DNA from: a virus
Length of the DNA: 64,000 bases
Direction: 5' to 3' (one strand)
IMG/VR virus record: IMGVR_UViG_3300019487_000023
Location: 44,665 to 108,664 of that record
Shown: positions 16,530-34,779 of the stretch, one piece after another
Numbering within the stretch: the first letter of the stretch is position 1
Layout: each line of letters opens with the position of its first letter
Notes under the pieces: generated by a model
The model's input: only the letters and a program-made list of their open reading frames with translations
Database searches by the model: none
What the model was told of the DNA's origin: nothing
Made by a program: the position numbers and the translations under genes

Positions 16530-17066
16530 ATGCGTCAGCTTAGCTCTGAGGGTGTTAACCTAATTAAAAGTTTTGAAGGTCTATACTTGACCGCCTATCT
16601 AGACATCGTAGGAGTGCCTACGATTGGATATGGATGCACTGAAGGCGTTACCAAGGCCGACGTGCAGAACAAGCGTACAATCACTCCCCAACAAGCAGAA
16701 GACATGCTCCGCACTGAATTAGACAAGTTCTGTGTTGGTGTAGAGAAGTACGTTAAAGTCCCCCTCAATGACAATCAGTTTGCTGCTTTAGTATCTTTTA
16801 GCTACAACCTAGGTTTAGGTTCCCTACAAAAGTCAACTCTACTTAAACTTCTTAACTCTGGCGACTATACTGGCGCTAGTAACGAATTTGTTAAGTGGAA
16901 TAAGGCTGGTGGGAAAGAGGTCAACGGTCTCACCCGTAGACGCAATGCTGAACGCGACCTATTTTTGAAATCTTCAGGTACAATAAAATCAAATAGTCTT
17001 CTTCCAGATGGTCCATCAGATGATGAGATTCGCAAGAAGCTGGAAGCAGCGGAAGGAAAGAAGTAA
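16530..17066 (+). CDS. Endolysin, T4-lysozyme-type muramidase (GH24), 178 aa
   Basis: Cleaves the peptidoglycan glycan strand at lysis. Catalytic Glu lies in LIKSFEGLYLTAYLD, followed by the GYG turn of VPTIGYGCTEG and the Asp/Thr region. The C-terminal NQFAALVSFSYNLGLGSL and GLTRRRNAERDLFL are typical of GH24. There is no signal peptide, so a holin elsewhere is expected. TATAAT at 16517-16522, preceded by TGA, lies seven bases before the ATG with no Shine-Dalgarno: a leaderless, separately promoted lysis gene. Confidence 0.9.
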   Translation: MRQLSSEGVNLIKSFEGLYLTAYLDIVGVPTIGYGCTEGVTKADVQNKRTITPQQAEDMLRTELDKFCVGVEKYVKVPLNDNQFAALVSFSYNLGLGSLQKSTLLKLLNSGDYTGASNEFVKWNKAGGKEVNGLTRRRNAERDLFLKSSGTIKSNSLLPDGPSDDEIRKKLEAAEGKK

Positions 17067-17150
17067 TGCATTAGGTTAATAGGCCTCCCTAAAGCTCGTG
17101 ATTAAGTTTCCGTTATTTCTAATTAACAACTTACTTACGAGGATAAACAA

Positions 17151-17702
17151 ATGAAAGAACAAATCAAAAAGCTTAAGCTCGAACTCAAAGAGTTGGCTAA
17201 GCAGATCAAAGAAAAGAAATCTCAAAGAAAATCGTCTAGCTGTGGCTATGTATCTGGTCTACACGAAGCCCGTGTTGCATTCAGACACAAACATGTTGCC
17301 TATTGTCTTGCGAGGGGCCGAACCCTTGAGCAAGTAGATAAGGGCGAACGTCTTAATATGGACCATGTCCAATGGTACATGGACTCCATGAAGCCAGAAT
17401 CTAAGAAGAAACTATACGCTGTTGTTAGCGACAAGCTCACCCCATCTCAACAAGCAGTACAGGCCGGTCATGCTGTAGCGGAATTCTTGAAGAAGAACCC
17501 GCACACTCAGTGGGATAACGGCTACCTCATCTACCTCACCGAAGCACCAGGATTTGACGGGAACATGCGCGGTTATCGTTGGATGGTCGGTAGTCATCAA
17601 TATGCAGAGTTCGTTGAACCTGACCTTGGGAATAAGATCACCGCGTACGCGTTGTTCGGTCCTGAGGCTGAAAGGATTCTTCAGCGTCACAAACTCCTTT
17701 AA
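17151..17702 (+). CDS. Peptidyl-tRNA hydrolase (Pth2-like) with N-terminal extension (183 aa)
   Basis: Residues ~85-180 match the Pth2 family: KKLYAVVSDKLTPSQQAVQA followed by GHAVAEFL, the strand-helix with the catalytic region, and a C-terminal ALFGPEAERIL. Pth2 enzymes release peptides from tRNAs that drop off ribosomes. The first ~85 residues are a Lys-rich coiled coil plus a basic segment not found in the core family. A Shine-Dalgarno (GAGG) precedes the ATG. It lies 272 bases before an amber-suppressor tRNA, which makes a shared translation role attractive but unproven. Confidence 0.7.
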   Translation: MKEQIKKLKLELKELAKQIKEKKSQRKSSSCGYVSGLHEARVAFRHKHVAYCLARGRTLEQVDKGERLNMDHVQWYMDSMKPESKKKLYAVVSDKLTPSQQAVQAGHAVAEFLKKNPHTQWDNGYLIYLTEAPGFDGNMRGYRWMVGSHQYAEFVEPDLGNKITAYALFGPEAERILQRHKLL

Positions 17703-17723
17703 TATTGATCTACCGGAGGTAAC

Positions 17724-17813
17724 ATGGAAGACAAAATCGATATCAAGAAAGATCTGGAGCTTATGACGAATACCAGGAGGCACTATCCGATATTGAATAA
17801 GTATAATGATTGA
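17724..17813 (+). CDS. Putative 29-residue small protein
   Basis: GGAGG six bases before ATG supports translation of MEDKIDIKKDLELMTNTRRH... to TGA at 17811-17813. The stop overlaps the next small ORF's ATG by one base. No family is recognised. Confidence 0.45.
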   Translation: MEDKIDIKKDLELMTNTRRHYPILNKYND

Positions 17814-17917
17814 TGTGCGGCATCTCGGATAGACGAGAGAACCGTTGGGATAGGATTAAAGAGTTACTAAACAATCCGAGGACGGTTCGAAACGAGCCCG
17901 CCAAAAATATCGGATAA
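17813..17917 (+). CDS. Putative 34-residue small protein
   Basis: Starts MCGISDRRENRWDRIKELL and ends at TAA. TATAAT (17802-17807) lies five bases upstream of the ATG, close to the leaderless spacing seen elsewhere. The TGATG overlap would also allow coupling to the 29-residue ORF. The product is short and basic with no known family. Confidence 0.4.
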   Translation: MCGISDRRENRWDRIKELLNNPRTVRNEPAKNIG

Positions 17918-17974
17918 GGCCTTGATGACTCAGGTGATCCAGTGAGTATAGCTTAACCTCACCCGCACAACAAT

Positions 17975-18052
17975 GCTCCATTAGCTCAGTTGGTCTAGAG
18001 CGGCGATCTCTAAAATCGTGCGTCGTGGGTTCGAATCCCTCATGGAGCGCCA
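17975..18052 (+). tRNA. tRNA-Sup (anticodon CUA, reads amber UAG), tRNA-Trp-like
   Basis: Full cloverleaf: 7-bp acceptor (GCTCCAT/ATGGAGC), D-stem GCTC/GAGC with GG in the loop, anticodon stem GCGAT/ATCGT (one G-U) and loop CTCTAAA, so the anticodon is CTA at 18010-18012. The T-arm has TTCGAAT and one mismatch, the discriminator is G, and CCA is encoded. The anticodon arm core TCTCTAAAA differs by one base from the TCTCCAAAA of bacterial tRNA-Trp (CCA), and G73 fits, suggesting a Trp-derived suppressor. Which amino acid it carries cannot be read from the sequence. Confidence 0.9.
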
Positions 18053-18057
18053 AATTT

Positions 18058-18495
18058 ATGAAACTCGTTAAAGCACTACAAGATGCCCATGCTGGAGAAC
18101 TTGCCGCGTATTACGCATACCAAGGGCACTGGAAGTCTCTCAAAGACCCTGGGGAACGAGTTAAAGTGCAAGAAATCCAAGAAGACGAACTAGAACACAT
18201 CCTATTCCTGTCCCATTACCTTCACAAAATGGGATATCAATCCTCTCCATATAAAGATTTCATCTGGACTCGTATTGGCAAGGCAATTGGTGCTCTTTGT
18301 CACATTACTGGTTGGTGGTTGCCGATGCGCATTGCTGGAATGATGGAAAGAATCGGCACTAAGAGTTATATCGAAATTTCAGTAATAGCTCGTGCCGAAG
18401 GGCATCCAGTGCTAGCAAGAAAACTTCTCGCAATGGCTGAAGTTGAGAAAAAAAACACGAAGAGTACTTCAATACCGTTTCAAGTTAAGATATAA
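18058..18495 (+). CDS. Ferritin-like diiron-fold protein, COQ7-like (145 aa)
   Basis: Helix 1 has HAGELAAYYAYQGHW and helix 2 QEDELEHILFLSHYL, giving the E and ExxH ligands of COQ7/rubrerythrin-like proteins. A GKAIGALCHITGW turn and MMERIGTKSYIEISV follow. The last helix has MAEVEKKN, where family members usually show ExxH, so one histidine ligand appears replaced by Asn. An A8 run lies at that point. The ATG is five bases after the tRNA's CCA, with no Shine-Dalgarno, so mRNA and tRNA are probably one transcript. A MiaE-type tRNA-modifying role is an alternative. Confidence 0.6.
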   Translation: MKLVKALQDAHAGELAAYYAYQGHWKSLKDPGERVKVQEIQEDELEHILFLSHYLHKMGYQSSPYKDFIWTRIGKAIGALCHITGWWLPMRIAGMMERIGTKSYIEISVIARAEGHPVLARKLLAMAEVEKKNTKSTSIPFQVKI

Positions 18496-18497
18496 GG

Positions 18498-19307
18498 ATG
18501 GATTCCTATCTTGACTTTCAAAAATATCGTGATCAATATGGCCTCAACGGTCTTAACACCAACGGCATAGAGGGATTGCCTACTCAAAACGGCGCTCTAT
18601 TCACCGTAGAGTACTTGCTCTGTCTTCTCGCAGATCCTAATGTTCCAGAGTCAATTAAAGTTTCTGAAGTTGAACGACTTAAACTCGTCTACAACTCCTT
18701 AGAGCTATTCCCTGGCATCTCTGTTCGAACCCCAACCTCAAATGAATTCGATTCGATGGATAATGTAGGTGCAATTTGTGCCTTCTCTGGCCTATTCGAT
18801 AACGGGAATTTCTCAAAGCGCTCGTATGAGCATGGGTCAAAAACTAGAGCTGAAGGAATAGATGACGGGCAGGATGCTAGCAATAACCACAAGTACTATC
18901 GCCTAGCTTGGGTATGGAATCTATTCAGAGCTCCTCTATTTTTCTGGAATAACAATAATCCAACTCTATTCTGTTTTCCAGGATGGCATGGTAGGTCGCC
19001 CGGCCACGTAGCGTTCATGAAAATGACCGCAGGAAAGTGGGTAGGTCCATTTGGGCAATTCGCAATCCTTATCAGTCAGTTCTTGGGATGCTTCAAAGAT
19101 AAGGGAGATACAGACGCGCGAAAGCTCCCATATGTGAATTGGCAGTATCTCAAAACCAGAAACTTCGTATGGCGTCTCTTCTATAAGTTTTGGTGTTATA
19201 TCTTGATGAAGCAATATCAAGATGGCATGCGTACCGTCTATTCAACCTACTATAACGATCCAGACCATCCGATCCGAAAATACTCAACTAAGTACATCTC
19301 TGGTTGA
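18498..19307 (+). CDS. Unknown phage protein, aromatic-rich (269 aa)
   Basis: Begins MDSYLDFQKYRDQYGLNGLN immediately after the ferritin-like gene. It is rich in Trp, Phe and Tyr (YRLAWVWNLFRAPLFFWNN; RNFVWRLFYKFWCYILM), which could be membrane-associated but lacks a classical transmembrane helix. There are no catalytic motifs I can name. Related phage hypothetical proteins with alginate lyase-like or GH-type folds exist, but I cannot support either here. Confidence 0.55.
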   Translation: MDSYLDFQKYRDQYGLNGLNTNGIEGLPTQNGALFTVEYLLCLLADPNVPESIKVSEVERLKLVYNSLELFPGISVRTPTSNEFDSMDNVGAICAFSGLFDNGNFSKRSYEHGSKTRAEGIDDGQDASNNHKYYRLAWVWNLFRAPLFFWNNNNPTLFCFPGWHGRSPGHVAFMKMTAGKWVGPFGQFAILISQFLGCFKDKGDTDARKLPYVNWQYLKTRNFVWRLFYKFWCYILMKQYQDGMRTVYSTYYNDPDHPIRKYSTKYISG

Positions 19308-19518
19308 TTTGGGCGGCCCACTCAACTTCCTTAGTCTTCAAATATTTCTTCTCTCACTTACTCACGCACGAAGTGCGTGACCACACGCGGCACGCGTGTG
19401 AAACGTTAGTATATAAATTTCTCTGGTTAGATAGGTTAGTAAGGGGTGGTAAAGACATAGATCTATATACCCGCGACAGAGACATTTTTAACTCAGTTTT
19501 GAAAATAAATTTTACAAG
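19308..19518 (+). promoter_or_regulatory. 210-base non-coding region with two perfect tandem hairpins
   Basis: Hairpin 1: TCACGCAC-GAA-GTGCGTGA (19362-19380). Hairpin 2: CACACGCG-GCA-CGCGTGTG (19382-19400). Both have 8-bp perfect stems, three-base loops and a single base between them. No U tract follows, so they are not ordinary terminators. The rest is A+T-rich and leads into the dUTPase promoter. An RNA stability element, protein-binding site or single-strand origin are candidates. Confidence 0.6.
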
Positions 19519-19538
19519 TATAATGCATGCAATGGGAG
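19519..19538 (+). promoter_or_regulatory. -10 box and Shine-Dalgarno for dUTPase
   Basis: TATAAT 19519-19524. GGGAG 19534-19538 lies five bases before the chosen ATG at 19544. An in-frame ATG at 19532 is seven bases after the -10 box and could be used as a leaderless start instead. Confidence 0.55.
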
Positions 19539-19543
19539 ATTTT

Positions 19544-20059
19544 ATGGATAATGAAACTGCGATTGCGGTAATGGAACAGCTTAAGAAAGAACACTTCGAA
19601 ATTCAAGTAGAGGTTCTTGACGGCGGTAAGATGCCAACAAAGGCACACGCATCAGATGCTGGTTGGGATTTATACGCCACTGAAGACATTAAACTTTACC
19701 CAGGACAAGTTCTTAAACACCCATTGAATATCAGGCTTGCTTTACCGAAGAGCACTTGGGCAGAGATTACCACTAAGTCTGGACTCGGTAGCAAAGGTCA
19801 ACTCGTTTATGCTGGCGTCATCGATCAGGCATATCGTGGAGTTCCGCACGTTGTCATGACGAATGTCTGGATCATCCAAGAGATTGACCCAGAGGGTTTC
19901 CCATTGATGCGCACTGATCCCCTTGTAATCAAGAAGGGCGAGAAAGTAGCTCAACTTATCATGAATCCATACTCTGACAATTTCTATATGGTCCAGGTCG
20001 ACCAAGTTGACTCCAATACTGATAGAGGCGCTGGTGGATTTGGATCCAGCGGCAAATAA
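19544..20059 (+). CDS. dut: dUTP pyrophosphatase (171 aa)
   Basis: Hydrolyses dUTP to dUMP, keeping uracil out of DNA and feeding dTMP synthesis. The trimeric dUTPase motifs appear in order: HASDAGWDLYA (motif 1), ITTKSGLGSKGQ (motif 2, with the Ser-Gly-Leu loop), VIDQAYRGVPHVVMTNV (motif 3), KGEKVAQLIMNP (motif 4) and the C-terminal RGAGGFGSSGK (motif 5). It is slightly longer than typical because of an insert before motif 4. Thymidylate kinase at 51973 would act later in the same pathway. The stop overlaps the next ATG (TAATG). Confidence 0.93.
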   Translation: MDNETAIAVMEQLKKEHFEIQVEVLDGGKMPTKAHASDAGWDLYATEDIKLYPGQVLKHPLNIRLALPKSTWAEITTKSGLGSKGQLVYAGVIDQAYRGVPHVVMTNVWIIQEIDPEGFPLMRTDPLVIKKGEKVAQLIMNPYSDNFYMVQVDQVDSNTDRGAGGFGSSGK

Positions 20060-23846: not shown

Positions 23847-24306
23847 GTATGCTGACTATAACAAGACGTGGAAAGAAAACAACAAAGACCGTGAATTGGA
23901 TAATTGTAGGCGTTGGGCCAAAGAAAACTTAGAACATAGAAGACAATATAAAAGATTGTTGCACCAAAAACAGATGCAAGATCCAAATTATAGACTTAAA
24001 AGAATATTAAGAAATAGATTTTATAAAGTTATAAGTGGTCGCTCTAAGGTACAGTCAGTTTTATGTTATATAGGGTGCACTGTCGATGAACTAAGGGTTC
24101 ATCTAGAAAAACAATTCGTTGATGACATGTCATGGGACAATCATGGCAGCTATTGGCACGTAGACCATGTCGTGCCGCTAACGTTATTTGATCATTCGAA
24201 CCAAGATGAAACAGCCAAAGCGTGGCATTTTTCTAATTTACAGCCATTAAAAGCGTTAGATAATCTTCGTAAGGGCAGTAAGGTTTATTTATGTGGGATA
24301 AAGTAA
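23836..24306 (+). CDS. HNH homing endonuclease, copy A (156 aa)
   Basis: GTG start at 23836 chosen because GGAGG sits five bases upstream within the chaperonin's last codons. A basic N-terminal helix region with several Lys/Arg-rich turns (RLKRILRNRFYKVISGRSK) precedes the HNH core: SYWHVDHVVPLTLFD and HFSNLQPLKALDNLRKG. It is closely related to the protein at 25361 in its last 80 residues. Free-standing, overlapping the genes on both sides, as homing endonucleases do. Confidence 0.8.
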   Translation: MPNKYADYNKTWKENNKDRELDNCRRWAKENLEHRRQYKRLLHQKQMQDPNYRLKRILRNRFYKVISGRSKVQSVLCYIGCTVDELRVHLEKQFVDDMSWDNHGSYWHVDHVVPLTLFDHSNQDETAKAWHFSNLQPLKALDNLRKGSKVYLCGIK

Positions 24307-25001
24307 AAACCTTCGTTGAAGGAAGCAAGGTAGCACAATTCGTACTTGTACTCCTTTTGGGAGTAGCGATTGGGGCCATCTTTTATCCCACAAAGCGCAT
24401 TGAAGAACGTGAGAAGTCTCGTTACGAAGAGCAATTGAAAATTACGAAAGAAGCCAACGAGAAGGAAGTTAAGCAACTCAATGAGAGGCTTGATAAGTCA
24501 GTAGAAGAAACTAAACAAGTTAGACAAGAGTCTGAAACTAAAATCTCTAAGCTTACTACTCAGGTTCATGATTTACAATCTAAGCAGAAGACCTCTTACT
24601 ACAAACTTGTAAAGCCCGATGGTACTGTTGAGATTAAGAAGTACTCTGAATCTGAAGTAACAGAGTCTACAAAGGTAATCACACAGATTCAAGAAGAGTT
24701 TAAGACAAAGATTGAATCTATTGAAACCAAATGGGAAACTCTACATAAGGAACGCGTTGAGACTCTTCAAAAGGAATGGTCTTCAAAAGAGCAAACCTAT
24801 CAAACAAAGATTGCTGAGCTAGAGAAATCAAAGGTCACTGAGATCAATCAGAAGAAATTTGGACTAGAAGCTGGTTTGATGTCTAACCTAAACTATTATG
24901 GTCACTTCAATGCTGATATCTTTGGTCCGATCTTTATCGGTGGTCAAGCAGAATTTGGTCCTGCACCAGCATTTGGATTGGGCCTCGGAATTCGATTCTA
25001 G
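24291..25001 (+). CDS. Membrane-anchored coiled-coil protein ending in amber TAG (236 aa)
   Basis: Residues ~15-33 are one transmembrane helix (AQFVLVLLLGVAIGAIFYP), followed by ~150 residues of charged coiled coil (KEVKQLNERLDKSVEETK) and a Gly/Phe-rich C-terminus (AEFGPAPAFGLGLGIRF). The layout resembles an inner-membrane spanin or an envelope-spanning protein, but cannot be proved. The stop is TAG at 24999-25001. The next gene's ATG is in the same frame 12 bases further, so suppression would fuse the two. Confidence 0.6.
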   Translation: MWDKVKTFVEGSKVAQFVLVLLLGVAIGAIFYPTKRIEEREKSRYEEQLKITKEANEKEVKQLNERLDKSVEETKQVRQESETKISKLTTQVHDLQSKQKTSYYKLVKPDGTVEIKKYSESEVTESTKVITQIQEEFKTKIESIETKWETLHKERVETLQKEWSSKEQTYQTKIAELEKSKVTEINQKKFGLEAGLMSNLNYYGHFNADIFGPIFIGGQAEFGPAPAFGLGLGIRF

Positions 25002-25013: not shown

Positions 25014-25364
25014 ATGCCTAAGTATAAATTCAAGTGTCCTGCCTGCAATGAAGAACGCGAGAAGTATACCTCTAAGGACATAGAGGAAGTACCTTGTCAC
25101 AAATGCGAAGGGCAACCTATGTTTCGCCAATTGCCTACAATCACCGGCCAAGAAGTACGGGAAACTGTAGACCCTATCCTTAATACTAAGTGGAAACAAG
25201 ATCACAAGCAGATCATCAAGGATCGCCATGATGATCACTATTGGGAAGTCGAGGTTCCTCGTCTTGTCCAAAAGTACTCTGTCGAAACCTGTTTAGAGCA
25301 ACAGTGGCTCATTTATAACGAAAAGGGCGAACTGGTCATCAATAAACCACCAAAAAAACGATGA
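25014..25364 (+). CDS. Zinc-ribbon protein, FmdB-like N-terminus (116 aa)
   Basis: Starts MPKYKFKCPACNEEREKYTS with C8/C11 and a second CxxC at C28/C31 (PCHKCEG), the zinc-ribbon layout of FmdB-type regulatory proteins. The remaining ~70 residues are charged and helical. The gene has its own -10 box with a six-base gap. It ends overlapping an HNH gene by four bases (ATGA). DNA or protein binding is plausible; the function is unknown. Confidence 0.6.
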   Translation: MPKYKFKCPACNEEREKYTSKDIEEVPCHKCEGQPMFRQLPTITGQEVRETVDPILNTKWKQDHKQIIKDRHDDHYWEVEVPRLVQKYSVETCLEQQWLIYNEKGELVINKPPKKR

Positions 25365-30630: not shown

Positions 30631-30635
30631 ATTTG

Positions 30636-30641
30636 TATAAT
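30636..30641 (+). promoter_or_regulatory. Leaderless-type -10 box for the DNA polymerase gene
   Basis: TATAAT ends six bases before ATG 30648, with no Shine-Dalgarno. It lies directly after a strong terminator, so it must supply polymerase transcription by itself. Confidence 0.65.
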
Positions 30642-30647
30642 ATCCGC

Positions 30648-32903
30648 ATGAATCGTTTTAAAGAACCAGCGCAACTTCATAATCACTCTAAATATTCACT
30701 GTTAGATGCTGTTCCATCACCAGAAGAATGGGTTGGATGGTGTTTAGAGAACAATACACCAGCGCTAGCAGTCACTGACCATGGTACCGCCATCTCAATG
30801 TTTGATGCGTTGCGTGCTAAAGAGTTTATCAAAGAATACAATAAAGAACATAAGACTAATCATCCGTTGGATGCTGTAACCCTTATCCCTGCCGTAGAGC
30901 TCTACGTCAAGATGAATGCAGAGGACAAGAGTCATCACCACATTACAGCTTGGGCTGCAAGCAAAGAGGGGTATTTCAATTTAATGAAGTTGGCCTCAGT
31001 TGCGTACAACGATACAGTTTCGTACTTCGGTTCCGTTAAGGCTCGTGTTACGTTCGAAGACATTAAACAGTACAAGAAGGGCATTAAGTTCGGTACCGGC
31101 TGCATTGCAGGACCAATTGGTCATGCCTTCTGGCATGGAGATCTTAAGCTTGCAGAAGAGCGCTTTGTCATGTATAAGGAACTCTTCGGTGACGATCTCT
31201 ATGTTGAATTTCACTGCGGTGACGTCACCCATAACTTCAATAAGAAAACCGGCAGCTTCGATCCTATCGAACCAGATGAATGCTCTTGCGATGGTAACAA
31301 GCAAAAGGGCTACAACATCTTCTTGTCTAAGATGGTTGATAAGTATGGTGGCAAATGCGTTCCAGTAACAGATGCCCATTTTATCAATCCTGAGGACAAG
31401 ATCGTCCAGGATTGTTTGCTCAAGAACGGTAATAGCAACGGCTGGTACTTTCATGAGTCGTACCATCAGATGCGATCTGAAGAGATGTTTACGAAGCTTA
31501 AGAGGCACCTTGGGAATTGGCTCACTGAAGATATGTTCATTCAGTGGGTCGAAAACACTTTTGAGGTGATGAATGCGGCTAAAGGCATCGAAGTTAAGTT
31601 CGACTATCATCTACCGTTGATCGATATTCCACAGGACATTAAAGACTTGCATCTAGAGGACTATAACCAGCAGACGCTTCAGTATATGATGCGCCTCATT
31701 AAGGATCATGGTCGTTGGAATGACTCGCCAGAGTATGTAGCGCGATTCAAGCAAGAGCTTGATGTCATCATGGATAATGAGAAGCTAAACTTCATCCCGT
31801 ACTTCCTAGTATATGAGGATATCGGTAGGTTTGCGCGTTCACAGGGCGTTCTTCAGGGCGTTGCTCGTGGATCTGCGGGCGGATCTCTCATCTCCTACTA
31901 TCTAAAAATCATTCATGTTGATCCCATTGCTGCTCACCTTCCATTTGAGAGATTCTTGTCTCATGCACGTATTAGAGCGGGTTCTTTCCCTGATATCGAT
32001 GCCGATATCGGTGATAAGGCGCGTTCTCTTATCATGGATTATCTAAAGAAGAAGTATGGTTTGGGCTTTGCACAGATTGCCACCTTCAATAAGATGAAGA
32101 CTAAGAATGCCATTAAGGATGCGATGTTTGCGCTATATGGGCGCAATCGCAACGATCAAGAAGTGATGGCAGTATGTAAAGACATCGAAGATAGCCCTCA
32201 AGGCGTTGACGAACATGACTTTTTGTATGGATACACAGACCAAGAAGGTAACTATAACGCCGGTCAGATTGAGATTAATAAGCAATTAGCCAATTTTTTC
32301 CAAACGTATCCAGATGTGGAAGCAATGGTTAAAAAGCTTATTGGTACGATCCGTGGTCTATCTAGACATGCGTCTGCATTCGTTATTTCAACCATGGATC
32401 TATCTGCATCTCGTGTTCCAACCATGATGATGACTGATGCTGATCTTGGTGAAATTCAAGTCACTCAGTACGATGCAAAGATGGTTGAAAAATGTGGTCT
32501 AGTTAAGGCTGATATCTTATGTATTAAAACCCTAACAGCTGTATCAGAGTGTATCGATTTGGTGAAGAGAAATGCCAACATTAACTACTTGATTGAGCAA
32601 GAAGGTTTGTCTCTCATATACCGTCTTCCGGAGGACAAGGATGTATATGCGGACTTCTATAACAAGCAGACCGATTCGTCATTCCAGTTTAATACTGAAT
32701 TGATTAAGGGATACATTCAAGAATTCTGCCCTCTACAGAGAGCCGATCTATCTGCCATGACAGCCTTGTGTCGACCTGGTGCATTAGACGCACCCTTAGG
32801 TTTTAATGCAGTGGTTGTAGTAGAATATGAAGATGGAACCTCAATTGAAGTTCCAAAAGAGGAGTATTCTATATGGGTCGAAAAGTGGAAAAAACAACAA
32901 TAG
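30648..32903 (+). CDS. dnaE: DNA polymerase III alpha (DnaE-type), N-terminal catalytic part (751 aa)
   Basis: The PHP domain begins LHNHSKYSLLDAV (H11, H13) with LAVTDHGTA. The palm shows PDIDADIGDKAR (acidic residues 449, 451, 453) and GLVKADILCIKTLT (D622), the C-family catalytic aspartates. Fingers begin with AMTALCRPGALDAPL. The family sequence then breaks: ~34 unrelated residues (VVVEYEDGTSIEVPKEEY...) lead to TAG. The missing remainder is encoded at 33415, after an HNH gene. Start 30648 follows TATAAT by six bases; the TTG at 30633 overlaps the -10 box and is rejected. Confidence 0.9.
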   Translation: MNRFKEPAQLHNHSKYSLLDAVPSPEEWVGWCLENNTPALAVTDHGTAISMFDALRAKEFIKEYNKEHKTNHPLDAVTLIPAVELYVKMNAEDKSHHHITAWAASKEGYFNLMKLASVAYNDTVSYFGSVKARVTFEDIKQYKKGIKFGTGCIAGPIGHAFWHGDLKLAEERFVMYKELFGDDLYVEFHCGDVTHNFNKKTGSFDPIEPDECSCDGNKQKGYNIFLSKMVDKYGGKCVPVTDAHFINPEDKIVQDCLLKNGNSNGWYFHESYHQMRSEEMFTKLKRHLGNWLTEDMFIQWVENTFEVMNAAKGIEVKFDYHLPLIDIPQDIKDLHLEDYNQQTLQYMMRLIKDHGRWNDSPEYVARFKQELDVIMDNEKLNFIPYFLVYEDIGRFARSQGVLQGVARGSAGGSLISYYLKIIHVDPIAAHLPFERFLSHARIRAGSFPDIDADIGDKARSLIMDYLKKKYGLGFAQIATFNKMKTKNAIKDAMFALYGRNRNDQEVMAVCKDIEDSPQGVDEHDFLYGYTDQEGNYNAGQIEINKQLANFFQTYPDVEAMVKKLIGTIRGLSRHASAFVISTMDLSASRVPTMMMTDADLGEIQVTQYDAKMVEKCGLVKADILCIKTLTAVSECIDLVKRNANINYLIEQEGLSLIYRLPEDKDVYADFYNKQTDSSFQFNTELIKGYIQEFCPLQRADLSAMTALCRPGALDAPLGFNAVVVVEYEDGTSIEVPKEEYSIWVEKWKKQQ

Positions 32904-33457
32904 ATGCAGCTATTGATTATTTTGTAAAAAACAACGTGCGTTTTATTGATATATCAGAGAAATTTAAAATCAGTACCAGTACTATTTCTCAACATTTAAA
33001 AAAAAGAGGCATTAAGGTTGATTCTCAAAGAACAAGGAGAGGTAGGTCTTCTTGGAATTCTGGGAAAAATAAGTATAGCGATACGCGAGTTGCAAAAAAT
33101 GCGAAGTCTTTATCTGATGCAAAAACAAAAACAGGACTTCGTTCGGGTTATCAGACAATATATGTCGATGAGTTAAAAAAGCGAATTAGATTACATGAGT
33201 ATGTTTGGTTTAAAAATACCGGAGTATGGCCAGATGGTAAAAATAGAGAACAAGTTCATCATATAGACGGAGATAAACTTAACAACGATTTTGATAATCT
33301 CTTGTTGGTAAAGACAGATGAGCACTCTAAAATCCACAAAGAGTACGAGATAGTGTTTTTGAAGTTATTAAAGCTAGGTTTGATTAAATTTGATAAAATT
33401 GCAAGAGGTGTAGATTGGCGGAGCTTCGAAGAGTTGATAAAAAAATTAAAAGTGTAA
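32873..33457 (+). CDS. HNH homing endonuclease splitting the polymerase gene (194 aa)
   Basis: The N-terminal helix-turn-helix (FVKNNVRFIDISEKFKISTS, then TISQHLKKRGIK) is a DNA-binding domain of the type used by homing enzymes. The HNH core is REQVHHIDGDKLNNDFDNLL with an upstream RIRLHEYVWFKNTG. Start has GAGGAG upstream and lies 31 bases before the end of the first polymerase part. It ends 43 bases after the TTG start of the second part. Most likely it inserted in a polymerase gene and left both halves translatable. Confidence 0.9.
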   Translation: MGRKVEKTTIDAAIDYFVKNNVRFIDISEKFKISTSTISQHLKKRGIKVDSQRTRRGRSSWNSGKNKYSDTRVAKNAKSLSDAKTKTGLRSGYQTIYVDELKKRIRLHEYVWFKNTGVWPDGKNREQVHHIDGDKLNNDFDNLLLVKTDEHSKIHKEYEIVFLKLLKLGLIKFDKIARGVDWRSFEELIKKLKV

Positions 33458-34779
33458 CTATTAGACCTTTGTATGACACAACAGCTGCCCAGTATTACAT
33501 GGATGTTCGAAATGCAAAGCGCTCTGTAGAGTATTTACACGATGATTTGGCGCTTATCCTGAAGGACAGCAATGGAGTTTTTGTCTATCAAGAGGAAGTA
33601 ATGAAGTTCCTCGTGGATATTGTTGGATACACATGGGAGGAGTCTGATCGTATTCGTGATGCTATCGCTAAGAAGAAACACGAAGTCATTATGGCTACGT
33701 TCGATAAGATCAGGGTGTCTTGTGCTGCCCGAGGATGGGACCATGGCGCTATTGAGACCGTGTGTCAGCAGATTCAAGCATTCTCACGTTACTCCTTTAA
33801 CAAGAGTCACTCCCATGCCTATGGTGAACTAGGATACATCACGATGTATTTGAAACATCATCATAAGCTAGAGTGGTGGTGCAGTATTTTGAACCTAAGT
33901 TTGGATGACTCAGAAGAGAAGACACGTAAGTATATTGCGCTTCTTGGAGATTTGGTTAAACCACCTTCGTTGAAGCACCCAACTTCTAAGTTCGAAATTC
34001 GTGAAGTTGATGGCGAAAGAGTCATCATTACACCAATCTCTGCTATTAAGGGATGTGGTCCTGCGGTTGTTAATGAACTCTGCACAAAGGGTCCATTTGC
34101 TTCTATCGAAGATCTCATTGAGCGTATCGATCATCGTAAGGTCAATACTGGCTGCATCTCGTCCTTGATTAAGGGTAGAGCAGCAGATGACATGATGGAT
34201 GCTGATGTGCCTGTCTATAGCGATAGGAGACTTAAGTTCATTGAGGACTTTAAGCGTATCAGAGCAAAAGAAGTTAAGTTGCAACCAGATGTGTTTAACG
34301 TAGATCCTCTCTCTATCTTTATGCAAGAGAAGGAATACAACACGGCGTTCAACAAAGCACTTCTCTCATCTCTTGAGATTGTGGATGTATTAAAATCAAA
34401 GTGGCCAGCGCTTTCAACAACGGGTCGCGCAGGTGCGCCTCTCTTGATGAAGGTTGATGGCAAGCAGATTCCAGTGCTTGCAAATTTAAAGGTTGCTGAA
34501 GGCTTTTTGAAGAAAGGCTATAGTAGCGAGATTGGACTCATCTTGCTGTATGAAGAGTCTACTGCTAAGAAGGGTATCTCTAAGAGAAGCGGCAAACAGT
34601 GGTCTAACTTGACAGTCCACCTATCTGATGGCTTCCATCAAATTGAGTGTGTAGACTGGAAGAAGAGCGTCGCACTAAAGTGGCCAAAGAATACCATCGT
34701 TTACGTAAGAGGTATATTGGAAGAGGGTTGGAAAACACCAGTCTCTTTGAATATCAAGGAAATCGAAAGGATTGAATAA
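33415..34779 (+). CDS. dnaE: DNA polymerase III alpha (DnaE-type), C-terminal part (454 aa)
   Basis: TTG start supported by AGAGGTG five bases upstream. After ~19 residues, family sequence resumes at LYDTTAAQYYMDVRNAK, then GVFVYQEEVMKFLVDIVGYT, YSFNKSHSHAYGELGYITMY (fingers), ISAIKGCGPAVVNELCTKGP (helix-hairpin-helix) and a C-terminal OB-like region (WSNLTVHLSDGFHQIECVDW). These are exactly the portions missing from 30648-32903, so the two should assemble into one enzyme, as split NrdA does in phage Aeh1. Adjacent, co-directional and without a promoter of its own. Confidence 0.9.
   Translation: MAELRRVDKKIKSVTIRPLYDTTAAQYYMDVRNAKRSVEYLHDDLALILKDSNGVFVYQEEVMKFLVDIVGYTWEESDRIRDAIAKKKHEVIMATFDKIRVSCAARGWDHGAIETVCQQIQAFSRYSFNKSHSHAYGELGYITMYLKHHHKLEWWCSILNLSLDDSEEKTRKYIALLGDLVKPPSLKHPTSKFEIREVDGERVIITPISAIKGCGPAVVNELCTKGPFASIEDLIERIDHRKVNTGCISSLIKGRAADDMMDADVPVYSDRRLKFIEDFKRIRAKEVKLQPDVFNVDPLSIFMQEKEYNTAFNKALLSSLEIVDVLKSKWPALSTTGRAGAPLLMKVDGKQIPVLANLKVAEGFLKKGYSSEIGLILLYEESTAKKGISKRSGKQWSNLTVHLSDGFHQIECVDWKKSVALKWPKNTIVYVRGILEEGWKTPVSLNIKEIERIE

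What the first reader, a model, noticed from the sequence alone, without database searches (positions are those of the whole stretch)
17975..18052. Phage-encoded amber suppressor tRNA that looks derived from tRNA-Trp
The cloverleaf is intact and the loop CTCTAAA gives anticodon CUA. The anticodon region differs by one base from the tRNA-Trp CTCCAAA loop, and discriminator G73 also fits Trp. E. coli su7 arose by the same change and is charged with Gln. Few genes here end in TAG (24999, 28821, 32901, 44930 and 27584 minus), so readthrough would be limited to a small set.
Basis: partly seen in the sequence, partly recalled or inferred. Interest (0 to 1): 0.8.

Follow-up and report, generated by a model that had tools for sequence, protein, structure and literature searches.

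The report
Phage stop-reading tRNA and partner protein
This phage carries a tRNA that reads a stop signal as an amino acid, and across many unrelated phages such tRNAs sit beside a gene for a protein shaped like an enzyme that handles tRNAs, which suggests an undescribed two-part phage tool acting on translation.

Summary
The tRNA at 17975-18052 is real (ARAGORN cta; Rfam 61.9 bits) and the only tRNA found in the 108,664-base phage record. It is no passenger: in its phage clade the anticodon CUA and the locus are kept while 18 of 21 stem pairs change on both sides. Origin from tRNA-Trp is not supported: the body scores Lys 47.6, Trp 45.8, and only 2 of 33 clade tRNAs score Trp-like. UAG is not recoded (8 of 104 genes end in TAG) and no conserved readthrough target was found. 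New here: the gene just upstream (17151-17702) has a PTH2 (peptidyl-tRNA hydrolase 2) fold and travels with the tRNA: 33 of 34 CTA-bearing clade loci, 0 of 36 without. Beyond the clade: 42 of 119 amber-tRNA loci against 1 of 120 tRNA-Trp loci, and that one also has an amber tRNA. In reverse, 66 of 77 loci found by the protein alone have a CTA tRNA within 3 kb, always same strand. Phage amber tRNAs also have a weak 27:43 pair (94 of 151 not Watson-Crick; 293 of 1235 in other isotypes), published as strengthening stop reading. Most likely a two-gene stop-reading module; chemistry and purpose are inferred.

The parts
17975..18052 (+). Amber-suppressor tRNA gene, CCA encoded; only tRNA found in the record
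18010..18012 (+). Anticodon CTA, invariant in the clade's syntenic tRNAs
18003..18003 (+). Position 27 (G) of the weak G27-U43 pair at the top of the anticodon stem
   Evidence: pair is GU or unpaired in 23 of 25 clade tRNAs with letters on both sides
18019..18019 (+). Position 43 (T) of the weak G27-U43 pair
17151..17702 (+). Partner gene (183 aa): helical N-terminal domain plus PTH2-fold domain; co-occurs with the CTA tRNA
17409..17699 (+). PTH2-fold domain (aa 87-183); in 79 diverse relatives Q104, H107, E156 and T164 are kept and the canonical lysine position (Q100) is mostly Q or Y
17151..17405 (+). N-terminal helical domain (aa 1-85); a separate gene or absent in some relatives

Best explanation
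17975-18052 encodes a functional amber-suppressor tRNA that is one half of a conserved two-gene phage module; the other half is the PTH2-fold protein of 17151-17702, just upstream on the same strand. Shown by sequence: a real, selected tRNA; a fixed CUA anticodon; a weak 27:43 pair; linkage and joint gain or loss with the PTH2-like gene; UAG still an ordinary stop in this phage. Inferred: a host synthetase charges the tRNA (Lys-like body, amino acid unknown); during infection it competes with release factor 1 at UAG, helped by the weak 27:43 pair and possibly reaching UAA; the PTH2-like protein binds the acceptor arm of the charged or peptidyl form of this tRNA and clears or limits it, so that readthrough does not tie up tRNA and ribosomes. 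I put the module at about 0.9, suppression of UAG in cells at about 0.8, and the clearing or limiting role of the protein at about 0.4.
For: tRNA real and selected. Same place in the clade: 34 of 70 loci that could be judged have it. PTH2-like gene in 33 of 34 CTA+ and 0 of 36 CTA- loci; the 34th, L281, keeps a remnant ORF. On the helicase tree CTA needs 11 changes, and 7 of 7 supported independent pairs change both traits together. Outside the clade: 42 of 119 CTA loci against 1 of 120 Trp loci, Fisher p 6e-14; by lineage 14 of 34 against 1 of 56, or 26 of 70 against 1 of 89; the one Trp locus has a cta tRNA 7 nt after its PTH2-like gene. Reverse: 66 of 77 loci found by the protein alone have a CTA tRNA within 3 kb, 70 of 70 such tRNAs on the same strand, next commonest anticodon 14 times. 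Named phages: Mycobacterium phage IkeLoa, gene 151 'peptidyl tRNA hydrolase' then tRNA-Pyl(cta); Lak-B4, Lak-C1 and LR745208 have tRNA-Stop(tta) beside the gene. Fold: Bit1 1q7s Z 10.8, Sulfolobus Pth2 1xty Z 10.2. 27:43 not Watson-Crick in 94 of 151 thinned CTA tRNAs against 293 of 1235 others, p 7e-21; PMC13092985 (passages) reports that an unpaired 27-43 makes CUA tRNAs read UAG better, or UAA too.
Against: No expression, charging or readthrough data. No phage gene was found that needs the tRNA. UAG is neither recoded nor clearly avoided. The catalytic lysine of PTH2 appears to be missing, so hydrolysis is unproven. The window's own protein has no PF01981 hit; homologues reach the cut-off. 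Half of the CTA loci with 3 kb on both sides lack the local PTH2-like gene (15 of 31 have it). Phosso, CBB and phiN3 lack it within 3 kb. One lineage (G012, G017) has a PTH2-like gene without a CTA tRNA. The 27:43 weakness does not depend on having PTH2 nearby. The HMM and the alignment were seeded with CTA-linked proteins.
Confidence: 0.55

Rival explanations
1. One reading: a former tRNA-Trp with one anticodon change, charged with Gln as su7 is, reading through a handful of TAG-ended phage genes.
For: Loop one base from CTCCAAA and G73 in this copy; Trp is the second-best body score, 45.8 against Lys 47.6.
Against: 2 of 33 clade tRNAs score Trp; discriminator T 14, A 11, G 8; 1:72 is G:C in 32 of 33, whereas su7 has A1:U72 (recalled). 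No conserved readthrough.
Confidence: 0.08
2. The pair is aimed at the host: readthrough of host UAG (and perhaps UAA) stops upsets host proteins or defence, and the PTH2-like protein shields the phage from the clean-up cost.
For: Conserved in many lineages without any phage target; anticodon stem weakened as in strong suppressors.
Against: No host data; phage genes ending in TAG (4-19% of calls in CTA+ genomes) would be read through too.
Confidence: 0.3
3. Counter-defence: the tRNA replaces or decoys a tRNA attacked by a host toxin, and the PTH2-like protein removes blocked aminoacyl-tRNAs, as Pth does with acetylated ones (recalled).
For: PTH2 fold and tRNA partner; phage tRNAs in general are linked to defence (recalled).
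Against: A decoy would not need CUA kept in every member while the body drifts to 71% mean identity; matched Trp tRNAs lack the partner.
Confidence: 0.12
4. Recoding: the phage reads UAG as a sense codon throughout.
For: A CTA tRNA is usual in recoded phages (PMC13037316, passages).
Against: Major genes are open under the standard code; TAG ends 8 of 104 called genes; no TAG inside aligned homologues.
Confidence: 0.02
5. Hitch-hiking: both genes merely tend to lie in tRNA arrays and have no shared function.
For: A PTH2-like gene is known in cluster C mycobacteriophage arrays (PMC5966550, passages).
Against: In the window the tRNA is alone. Trp loci hold more tRNAs (6.8 against 4.1 per locus) yet almost no PTH2-like gene. 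Joint gains and losses.
Confidence: 0.06

Closest known systems
Phage amber-suppressor tRNAs without known target (Stenotrophomonas phage Summit PMC9022506; Xanthomonas phage XacN1 PMC5852040)
   Same: CUA tRNA in a phage whose UAG codons are treated as stops; those authors found no gene needing it (passages).
   Different: Here the tRNA is shown to be clade-conserved, linked to a PTH2-like gene, and to have a weak 27:43 pair.
Suppressor tRNAs of recoded (code 15) phages, including Lak megaphages
   Same: Stop-reading tRNA; Lak-B4 and Lak-C1 also have the PTH2-like gene beside a tta tRNA.
   Different: This phage keeps UAG as a stop.
PTH2 peptidyl-tRNA hydrolases (Bit1/PTRH2, archaeal Pth2; PF01981)
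   Same: Fold of aa 84-183 (Z 10.2-10.8, rmsd 2.3-2.5).
   Different: Lysine position mostly Q or Y; invariant E156 and T164; fused helical domain.
Cluster C mycobacteriophage tRNA arrays (PMC5966550)
   Same: Array with a PTH2-like gene (passages); in IkeLoa it lies directly before tRNA(cta).
   Different: That paper treats arrays in general; the words suppressor and Pyl do not occur in it.
4-bp anticodon-stem tRNAs that read stops (PMC13092985)
   Same: Top anticodon-stem pair weakened.
   Different: Those read UGA with CCA; these have a stop-cognate CUA and are phage-borne.

Membership tests
tRNA | Cloverleaf supported by compensatory changes | tested here: met
tRNA | Processed and aminoacylated in cells | not testable with these tools
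   no RNA data
Amber-suppressor tRNA | CUA anticodon with U33, conserved | tested here: met
Amber-suppressor tRNA | Raises UAG readthrough | not testable with these tools
   needs an assay
tRNA-Trp derivative | Body closest to tRNA-Trp | tested here: inconclusive
   Lys 47.6, Trp 45.8 for this copy; clade 2 of 33 Trp; self-test imperfect (Lys 9/12, Trp 11/12, not held out)
tRNA-Trp derivative | G73 conserved | tested here: not met
   G in 8 of 33
tRNA-Pyl (ARAGORN label) | Lacks G18-G19, very short variable loop (recalled) | tested here: not met
   GG in the D loop, five-base variable loop
tRNA-Pyl (ARAGORN label) | PylS gene nearby | not tested
   not searched
Recoded phage, code 15 | TAG inside conserved genes; TAG unused as stop | tested here: not met
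PTH2 (PF01981) | PTH2 fold | tested here: met
PTH2 (PF01981) | Profile match over cut-off | tested here: inconclusive
   met by L282 (23.1) and L307 (23.0), cut-off 23; not by the window protein
PTH2 (PF01981) | Catalytic lysine of the GK..Q..HA motif (role recalled) | tested here: not met
   alignments; Q 43, Y 19 at that column, K not among the six commonest letters
PTH2 (PF01981) | Peptidyl-tRNA hydrolysis | not testable with these tools
   needs an assay

The most novel reading that the evidence does not exclude
A widespread phage stop-codon takeover module: an unpinned CUA tRNA reads UAG, and through C34-A3 pairing also UAA, during infection, while a dedicated PTH2-fold protein with a non-canonical invariant Q/H/E/T site acts only on that tRNA's acyl or peptidyl form. 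It sets how far ribosomes run past stops, and is kept in at least a dozen phage lineages, in standard-code and recoded phages alike.
Probability: 0.3. Interest if true: 0.92.

Novelty: new variant of a known kind. Interest (0 to 1): 0.8.

Why it matters
Amber-suppressor tRNAs in phages with the ordinary code have been reported with no target and no function (PMC9022506, PMC5852040). A linked partner protein and a shared anticodon-stem signature turn that into a testable system, present in cultured Mycobacterium phages (IkeLoa group; 193 Mycobacterium records with the gene). It may also bear on how recoding phages began, since Lak phages carry the same kind of gene beside their stop-type tRNA, and could yield a natural protein partner for suppressor tRNAs.

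Tried and rejected
Recoding of TAG: no. Fusion of 24291-25001 with 25014-25364 through TAG: relatives match the two parts apart or separately. DNA polymerase TAG 32901 as a readthrough site: the gene is split by an HNH endonuclease insert, and G003 has it as one gene; no Rfam intron there. Conserved readthrough extensions: 100 TAG queries gave nothing consistent; the output was cut, and TAA and TGA controls gave the same kind of noise. Back-up stops after TAG: median 7 codons in CTA+, no different from other stops. Phage release factor: 1 of 22 records. Host: a helicase search of the genome collection gave only distant helicases, so no host. Canonical Pth1 motif near CTA tRNAs: none; canonical PTH2 motif in 4 CTA loci and no Trp locus. 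Theta ribozyme beside the tRNA (PMC10879173, passages): no Rfam match of that kind in 16900-19600. tRNA-dependent lysogeny (PMC10865867, outline and passages): not about suppressors. PF01981 anywhere in the record: 23 of 49 further CTA records against 6 of 49 Trp records, but the Trp records are shorter, so I give it little weight; these were 49 of the 75 CTA loci without a local hit and 49 of the 120 Trp loci. In one search I dropped 12 'short' loci and 12 near-identical ones before the tree. In one search I aligned 26 of the 33 distinct clade tRNAs. Publications: searches listed no paper whose title or abstract start links PTH2 to suppressor tRNAs; only listings and the passages named were read. 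One folding-library search (viral) was not made.

Full report
Observation. ARAGORN reports one tRNA in the window, 17975-18052, anticodon cta; Rfam scores it 61.9 bits. The window is the last 64,000 bases of a 108,664-base virus record, and no other tRNA is found in that record. Terminase, portal, DNA polymerase and helicase genes mark it as a tailed phage. Its nearest named relative by terminase is Myxococcus phage Mx1, at only 28% identity. The host is unknown.

Is it selected? A scan with an alignment of the neighbouring helicase kept 80 viral loci; with L013 and the window, 82 were examined. Judging by ARAGORN and by neighbouring genes, 34 have a CTA tRNA downstream of the helicase, 36 lack it although a gene beyond it is present, and 12 are too short. 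Some of these loci are near-copies of each other. The 33 distinct tRNAs share 71% mean identity, with loops CTCTAAA 29, TTCTAAA 3, CTCTAAC 1. Over 26 of them the cloverleaf is paired in 95.0% of cells and 18 of 21 pairs show changes on both sides. One pair stands out: the top anticodon-stem pair (27:43) is G-U in 13 and unpaired in 10 of 25, and never G-C or C-G.

Which tRNA is it? With the anticodon masked, profiles made from tRNAs of the fetched loci give Lys 47.6, Trp 45.8, Val 42.4 for the window copy; over the clade Lys 16, Trp 2 of 33; discriminator T 14, A 11, G 8; pair 1:72 G:C in 32 of 33. These profiles are rough (self-test not held out). They speak against a fixed Trp identity and do not settle the amino acid.

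Does the phage need it? TAG ends 8 of 104 genes of the record, 4-19% in 15 CTA+ contigs and 1-29% in 8 CTA- contigs. No homologue was found with a TAG inside a well-aligned stretch, no conserved extension past a TAG emerged, and the stretch after a TAG is about as long as after other stops. So UAG is an ordinary stop here, and the target, if any, is not visible. Authors of the Summit and XacN1 papers came to the same dead end (passages).

The neighbour. The gene at 17151-17702 encodes 183 aa. AlphaFold gives pLDDT 95.6; aa 84-183 match PTH2 structures (Bit1 Z 10.8, Pyrococcus 10.7, Sulfolobus Pth2 10.2; Foldseek ranks 1-10 are PTH2-type entries, though with E only 1.5e-3 to 1.7e-2). Homologues reach the Pfam PTH2 cut-off, the window protein does not. 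An HMM of 21 sequences finds the domain in 33 of 34 CTA+ and 0 of 36 CTA- loci. The odd one, L281, has a short ORF that keeps the start of the helical domain and the end of the PTH2 domain. On a helicase tree of 54 rows CTA needs 11 changes, and in 7 of 7 supported independent pairs the two traits differ together. On contigs, 14 of 15 CTA+ and 2 of 8 CTA- records have the domain; the two belong to one lineage and have a divergent gene near a tRNA-like sequence with a gct call.

Beyond the clade. A PTH2-like ORF is in 42 of 119 and 1 of 120 at E 1e-4. The one, L457, has a cta tRNA 7 nt after the gene. Joining loci that share proteins, it is 14 of 34 CTA lineages against 1 of 56 Trp lineages (one shared protein) or 26 of 70 against 1 of 89 (two). 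The CTA set includes members of the window's clade, on which the HMM was trained; the lineage counts limit that bias. In reverse, a scan with the protein alignment alone kept 80 loci; of the 77 new ones 66 have a CTA tRNA within 3 kb, all 70 such tRNAs on the gene's strand, and the next commonest anticodon (cat) occurs 14 times. The alignment was made of CTA-linked proteins and some hits belong to the window's clade, so the figure describes this subfamily, not all PTH2.

Named phages. Mycobacterium phage IkeLoa: gene 151, annotated peptidyl tRNA hydrolase, then tRNA-Pyl(cta). Lak-B4, Lak-C1 and the uncultured LR745208: tRNA-Stop(tta) beside the gene; LR756501: two cta tRNAs about 2.2 kb on; LR745206: no stop-type tRNA within 6 kb. 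XacN1 and RAS14 have the domain at the end of a longer protein with no tRNA within 4 kb. Phosso, CBB and phiN3 have stop-type tRNAs and no such gene within 3 kb.

The active site. In 79 domains under 70% identical (plus the window's), Q104, H107, E156 and T164 (window numbering) are kept in 78-79; the column aligned with the lysine of the PTH2 GK..Q..HA motif holds Q 43, Y 19. That the lysine is catalytic is recalled. The family therefore has a conserved site of its own, and hydrolysis is possible but not shown.

The 27:43 pair. Over all fetched loci, thinned at 80% identity, 94 of 151 CTA tRNAs have no Watson-Crick pair at 27:43, against 293 of 1235 of other isotypes and 24 of 78 Trp. PMC13092985 (abstract and passages) reports that an unpaired 27-43 makes a CUA tRNA-Thr read UAG better and a CUA tRNA-Trp read UAA. 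This suggests tuning for stop reading. The signature is equally common with and without PTH2 nearby.

Mechanism. The tRNA most likely acts as a suppressor in infected cells; why a phage would want stops read is open (own genes, host genes, or rescue at stops). The partner has the fold of enzymes that act on the acyl end of tRNA, so the simplest role is on the charged or peptidyl form of this tRNA: clearing it when it falls off, or holding it in check. PMC5966550 (passages) made a related guess for Pth, RF-1 and tmRNA in mycobacterial arrays.

Limits.

Noticed in passing
window 30633-34779: DNA polymerase III alpha-like gene split in two ORFs by an HNH endonuclease ORF (32873-33457); relatives G003, G005 and G007 match both halves, G003 as one gene. 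No Rfam intron match.
   Followed up: partly
L284 10167-10248, L264 4860-4943, L270 6624-6703, L272 10161-10241, L269 10224-10310, L266 10112-10207, L010 5019-5100, L273 10160-10242: A second tRNA-like RNA upstream of the CTA tRNA position (in L273 without any CTA tRNA): acceptor, D and T arms (CCA in most) as in tRNA, but a deviant, often longer anticodon arm without a consistent anticodon. None found in the window.
   Followed up: partly
L268 8331-8486, L269 11505-11660, L272 11215-11368: Two different CTA tRNAs in tandem in three clade loci.
   Followed up: no
window 18058-18495: COQ7/ferritin-like gene starting right after the tRNA (35.5 bits, cut-off 23.5); largely absent from the relatives.
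   Followed up: no
window 17818-17915: Stretch just upstream of the tRNA that folds somewhat better than shuffles (z -1.99, 6 of 200), no convincing Rfam match.
   Followed up: partly
G009 153829-154014: Release-factor (RF-1) domain in one clade phage that carries two CTA tRNAs and about 30 tRNAs.
   Followed up: no
XacN1 ORF364 (L560 3461-4300), RAS14 (L562 3515-4300): PTH2-like domain fused to an HD-type N-terminal part (HD by eye) in two jumbo phages.
   Followed up: no
L026, L033, L064: Helical domain like the partner's N-terminal part near a CTA tRNA without a local PTH2-like gene.
   Followed up: no
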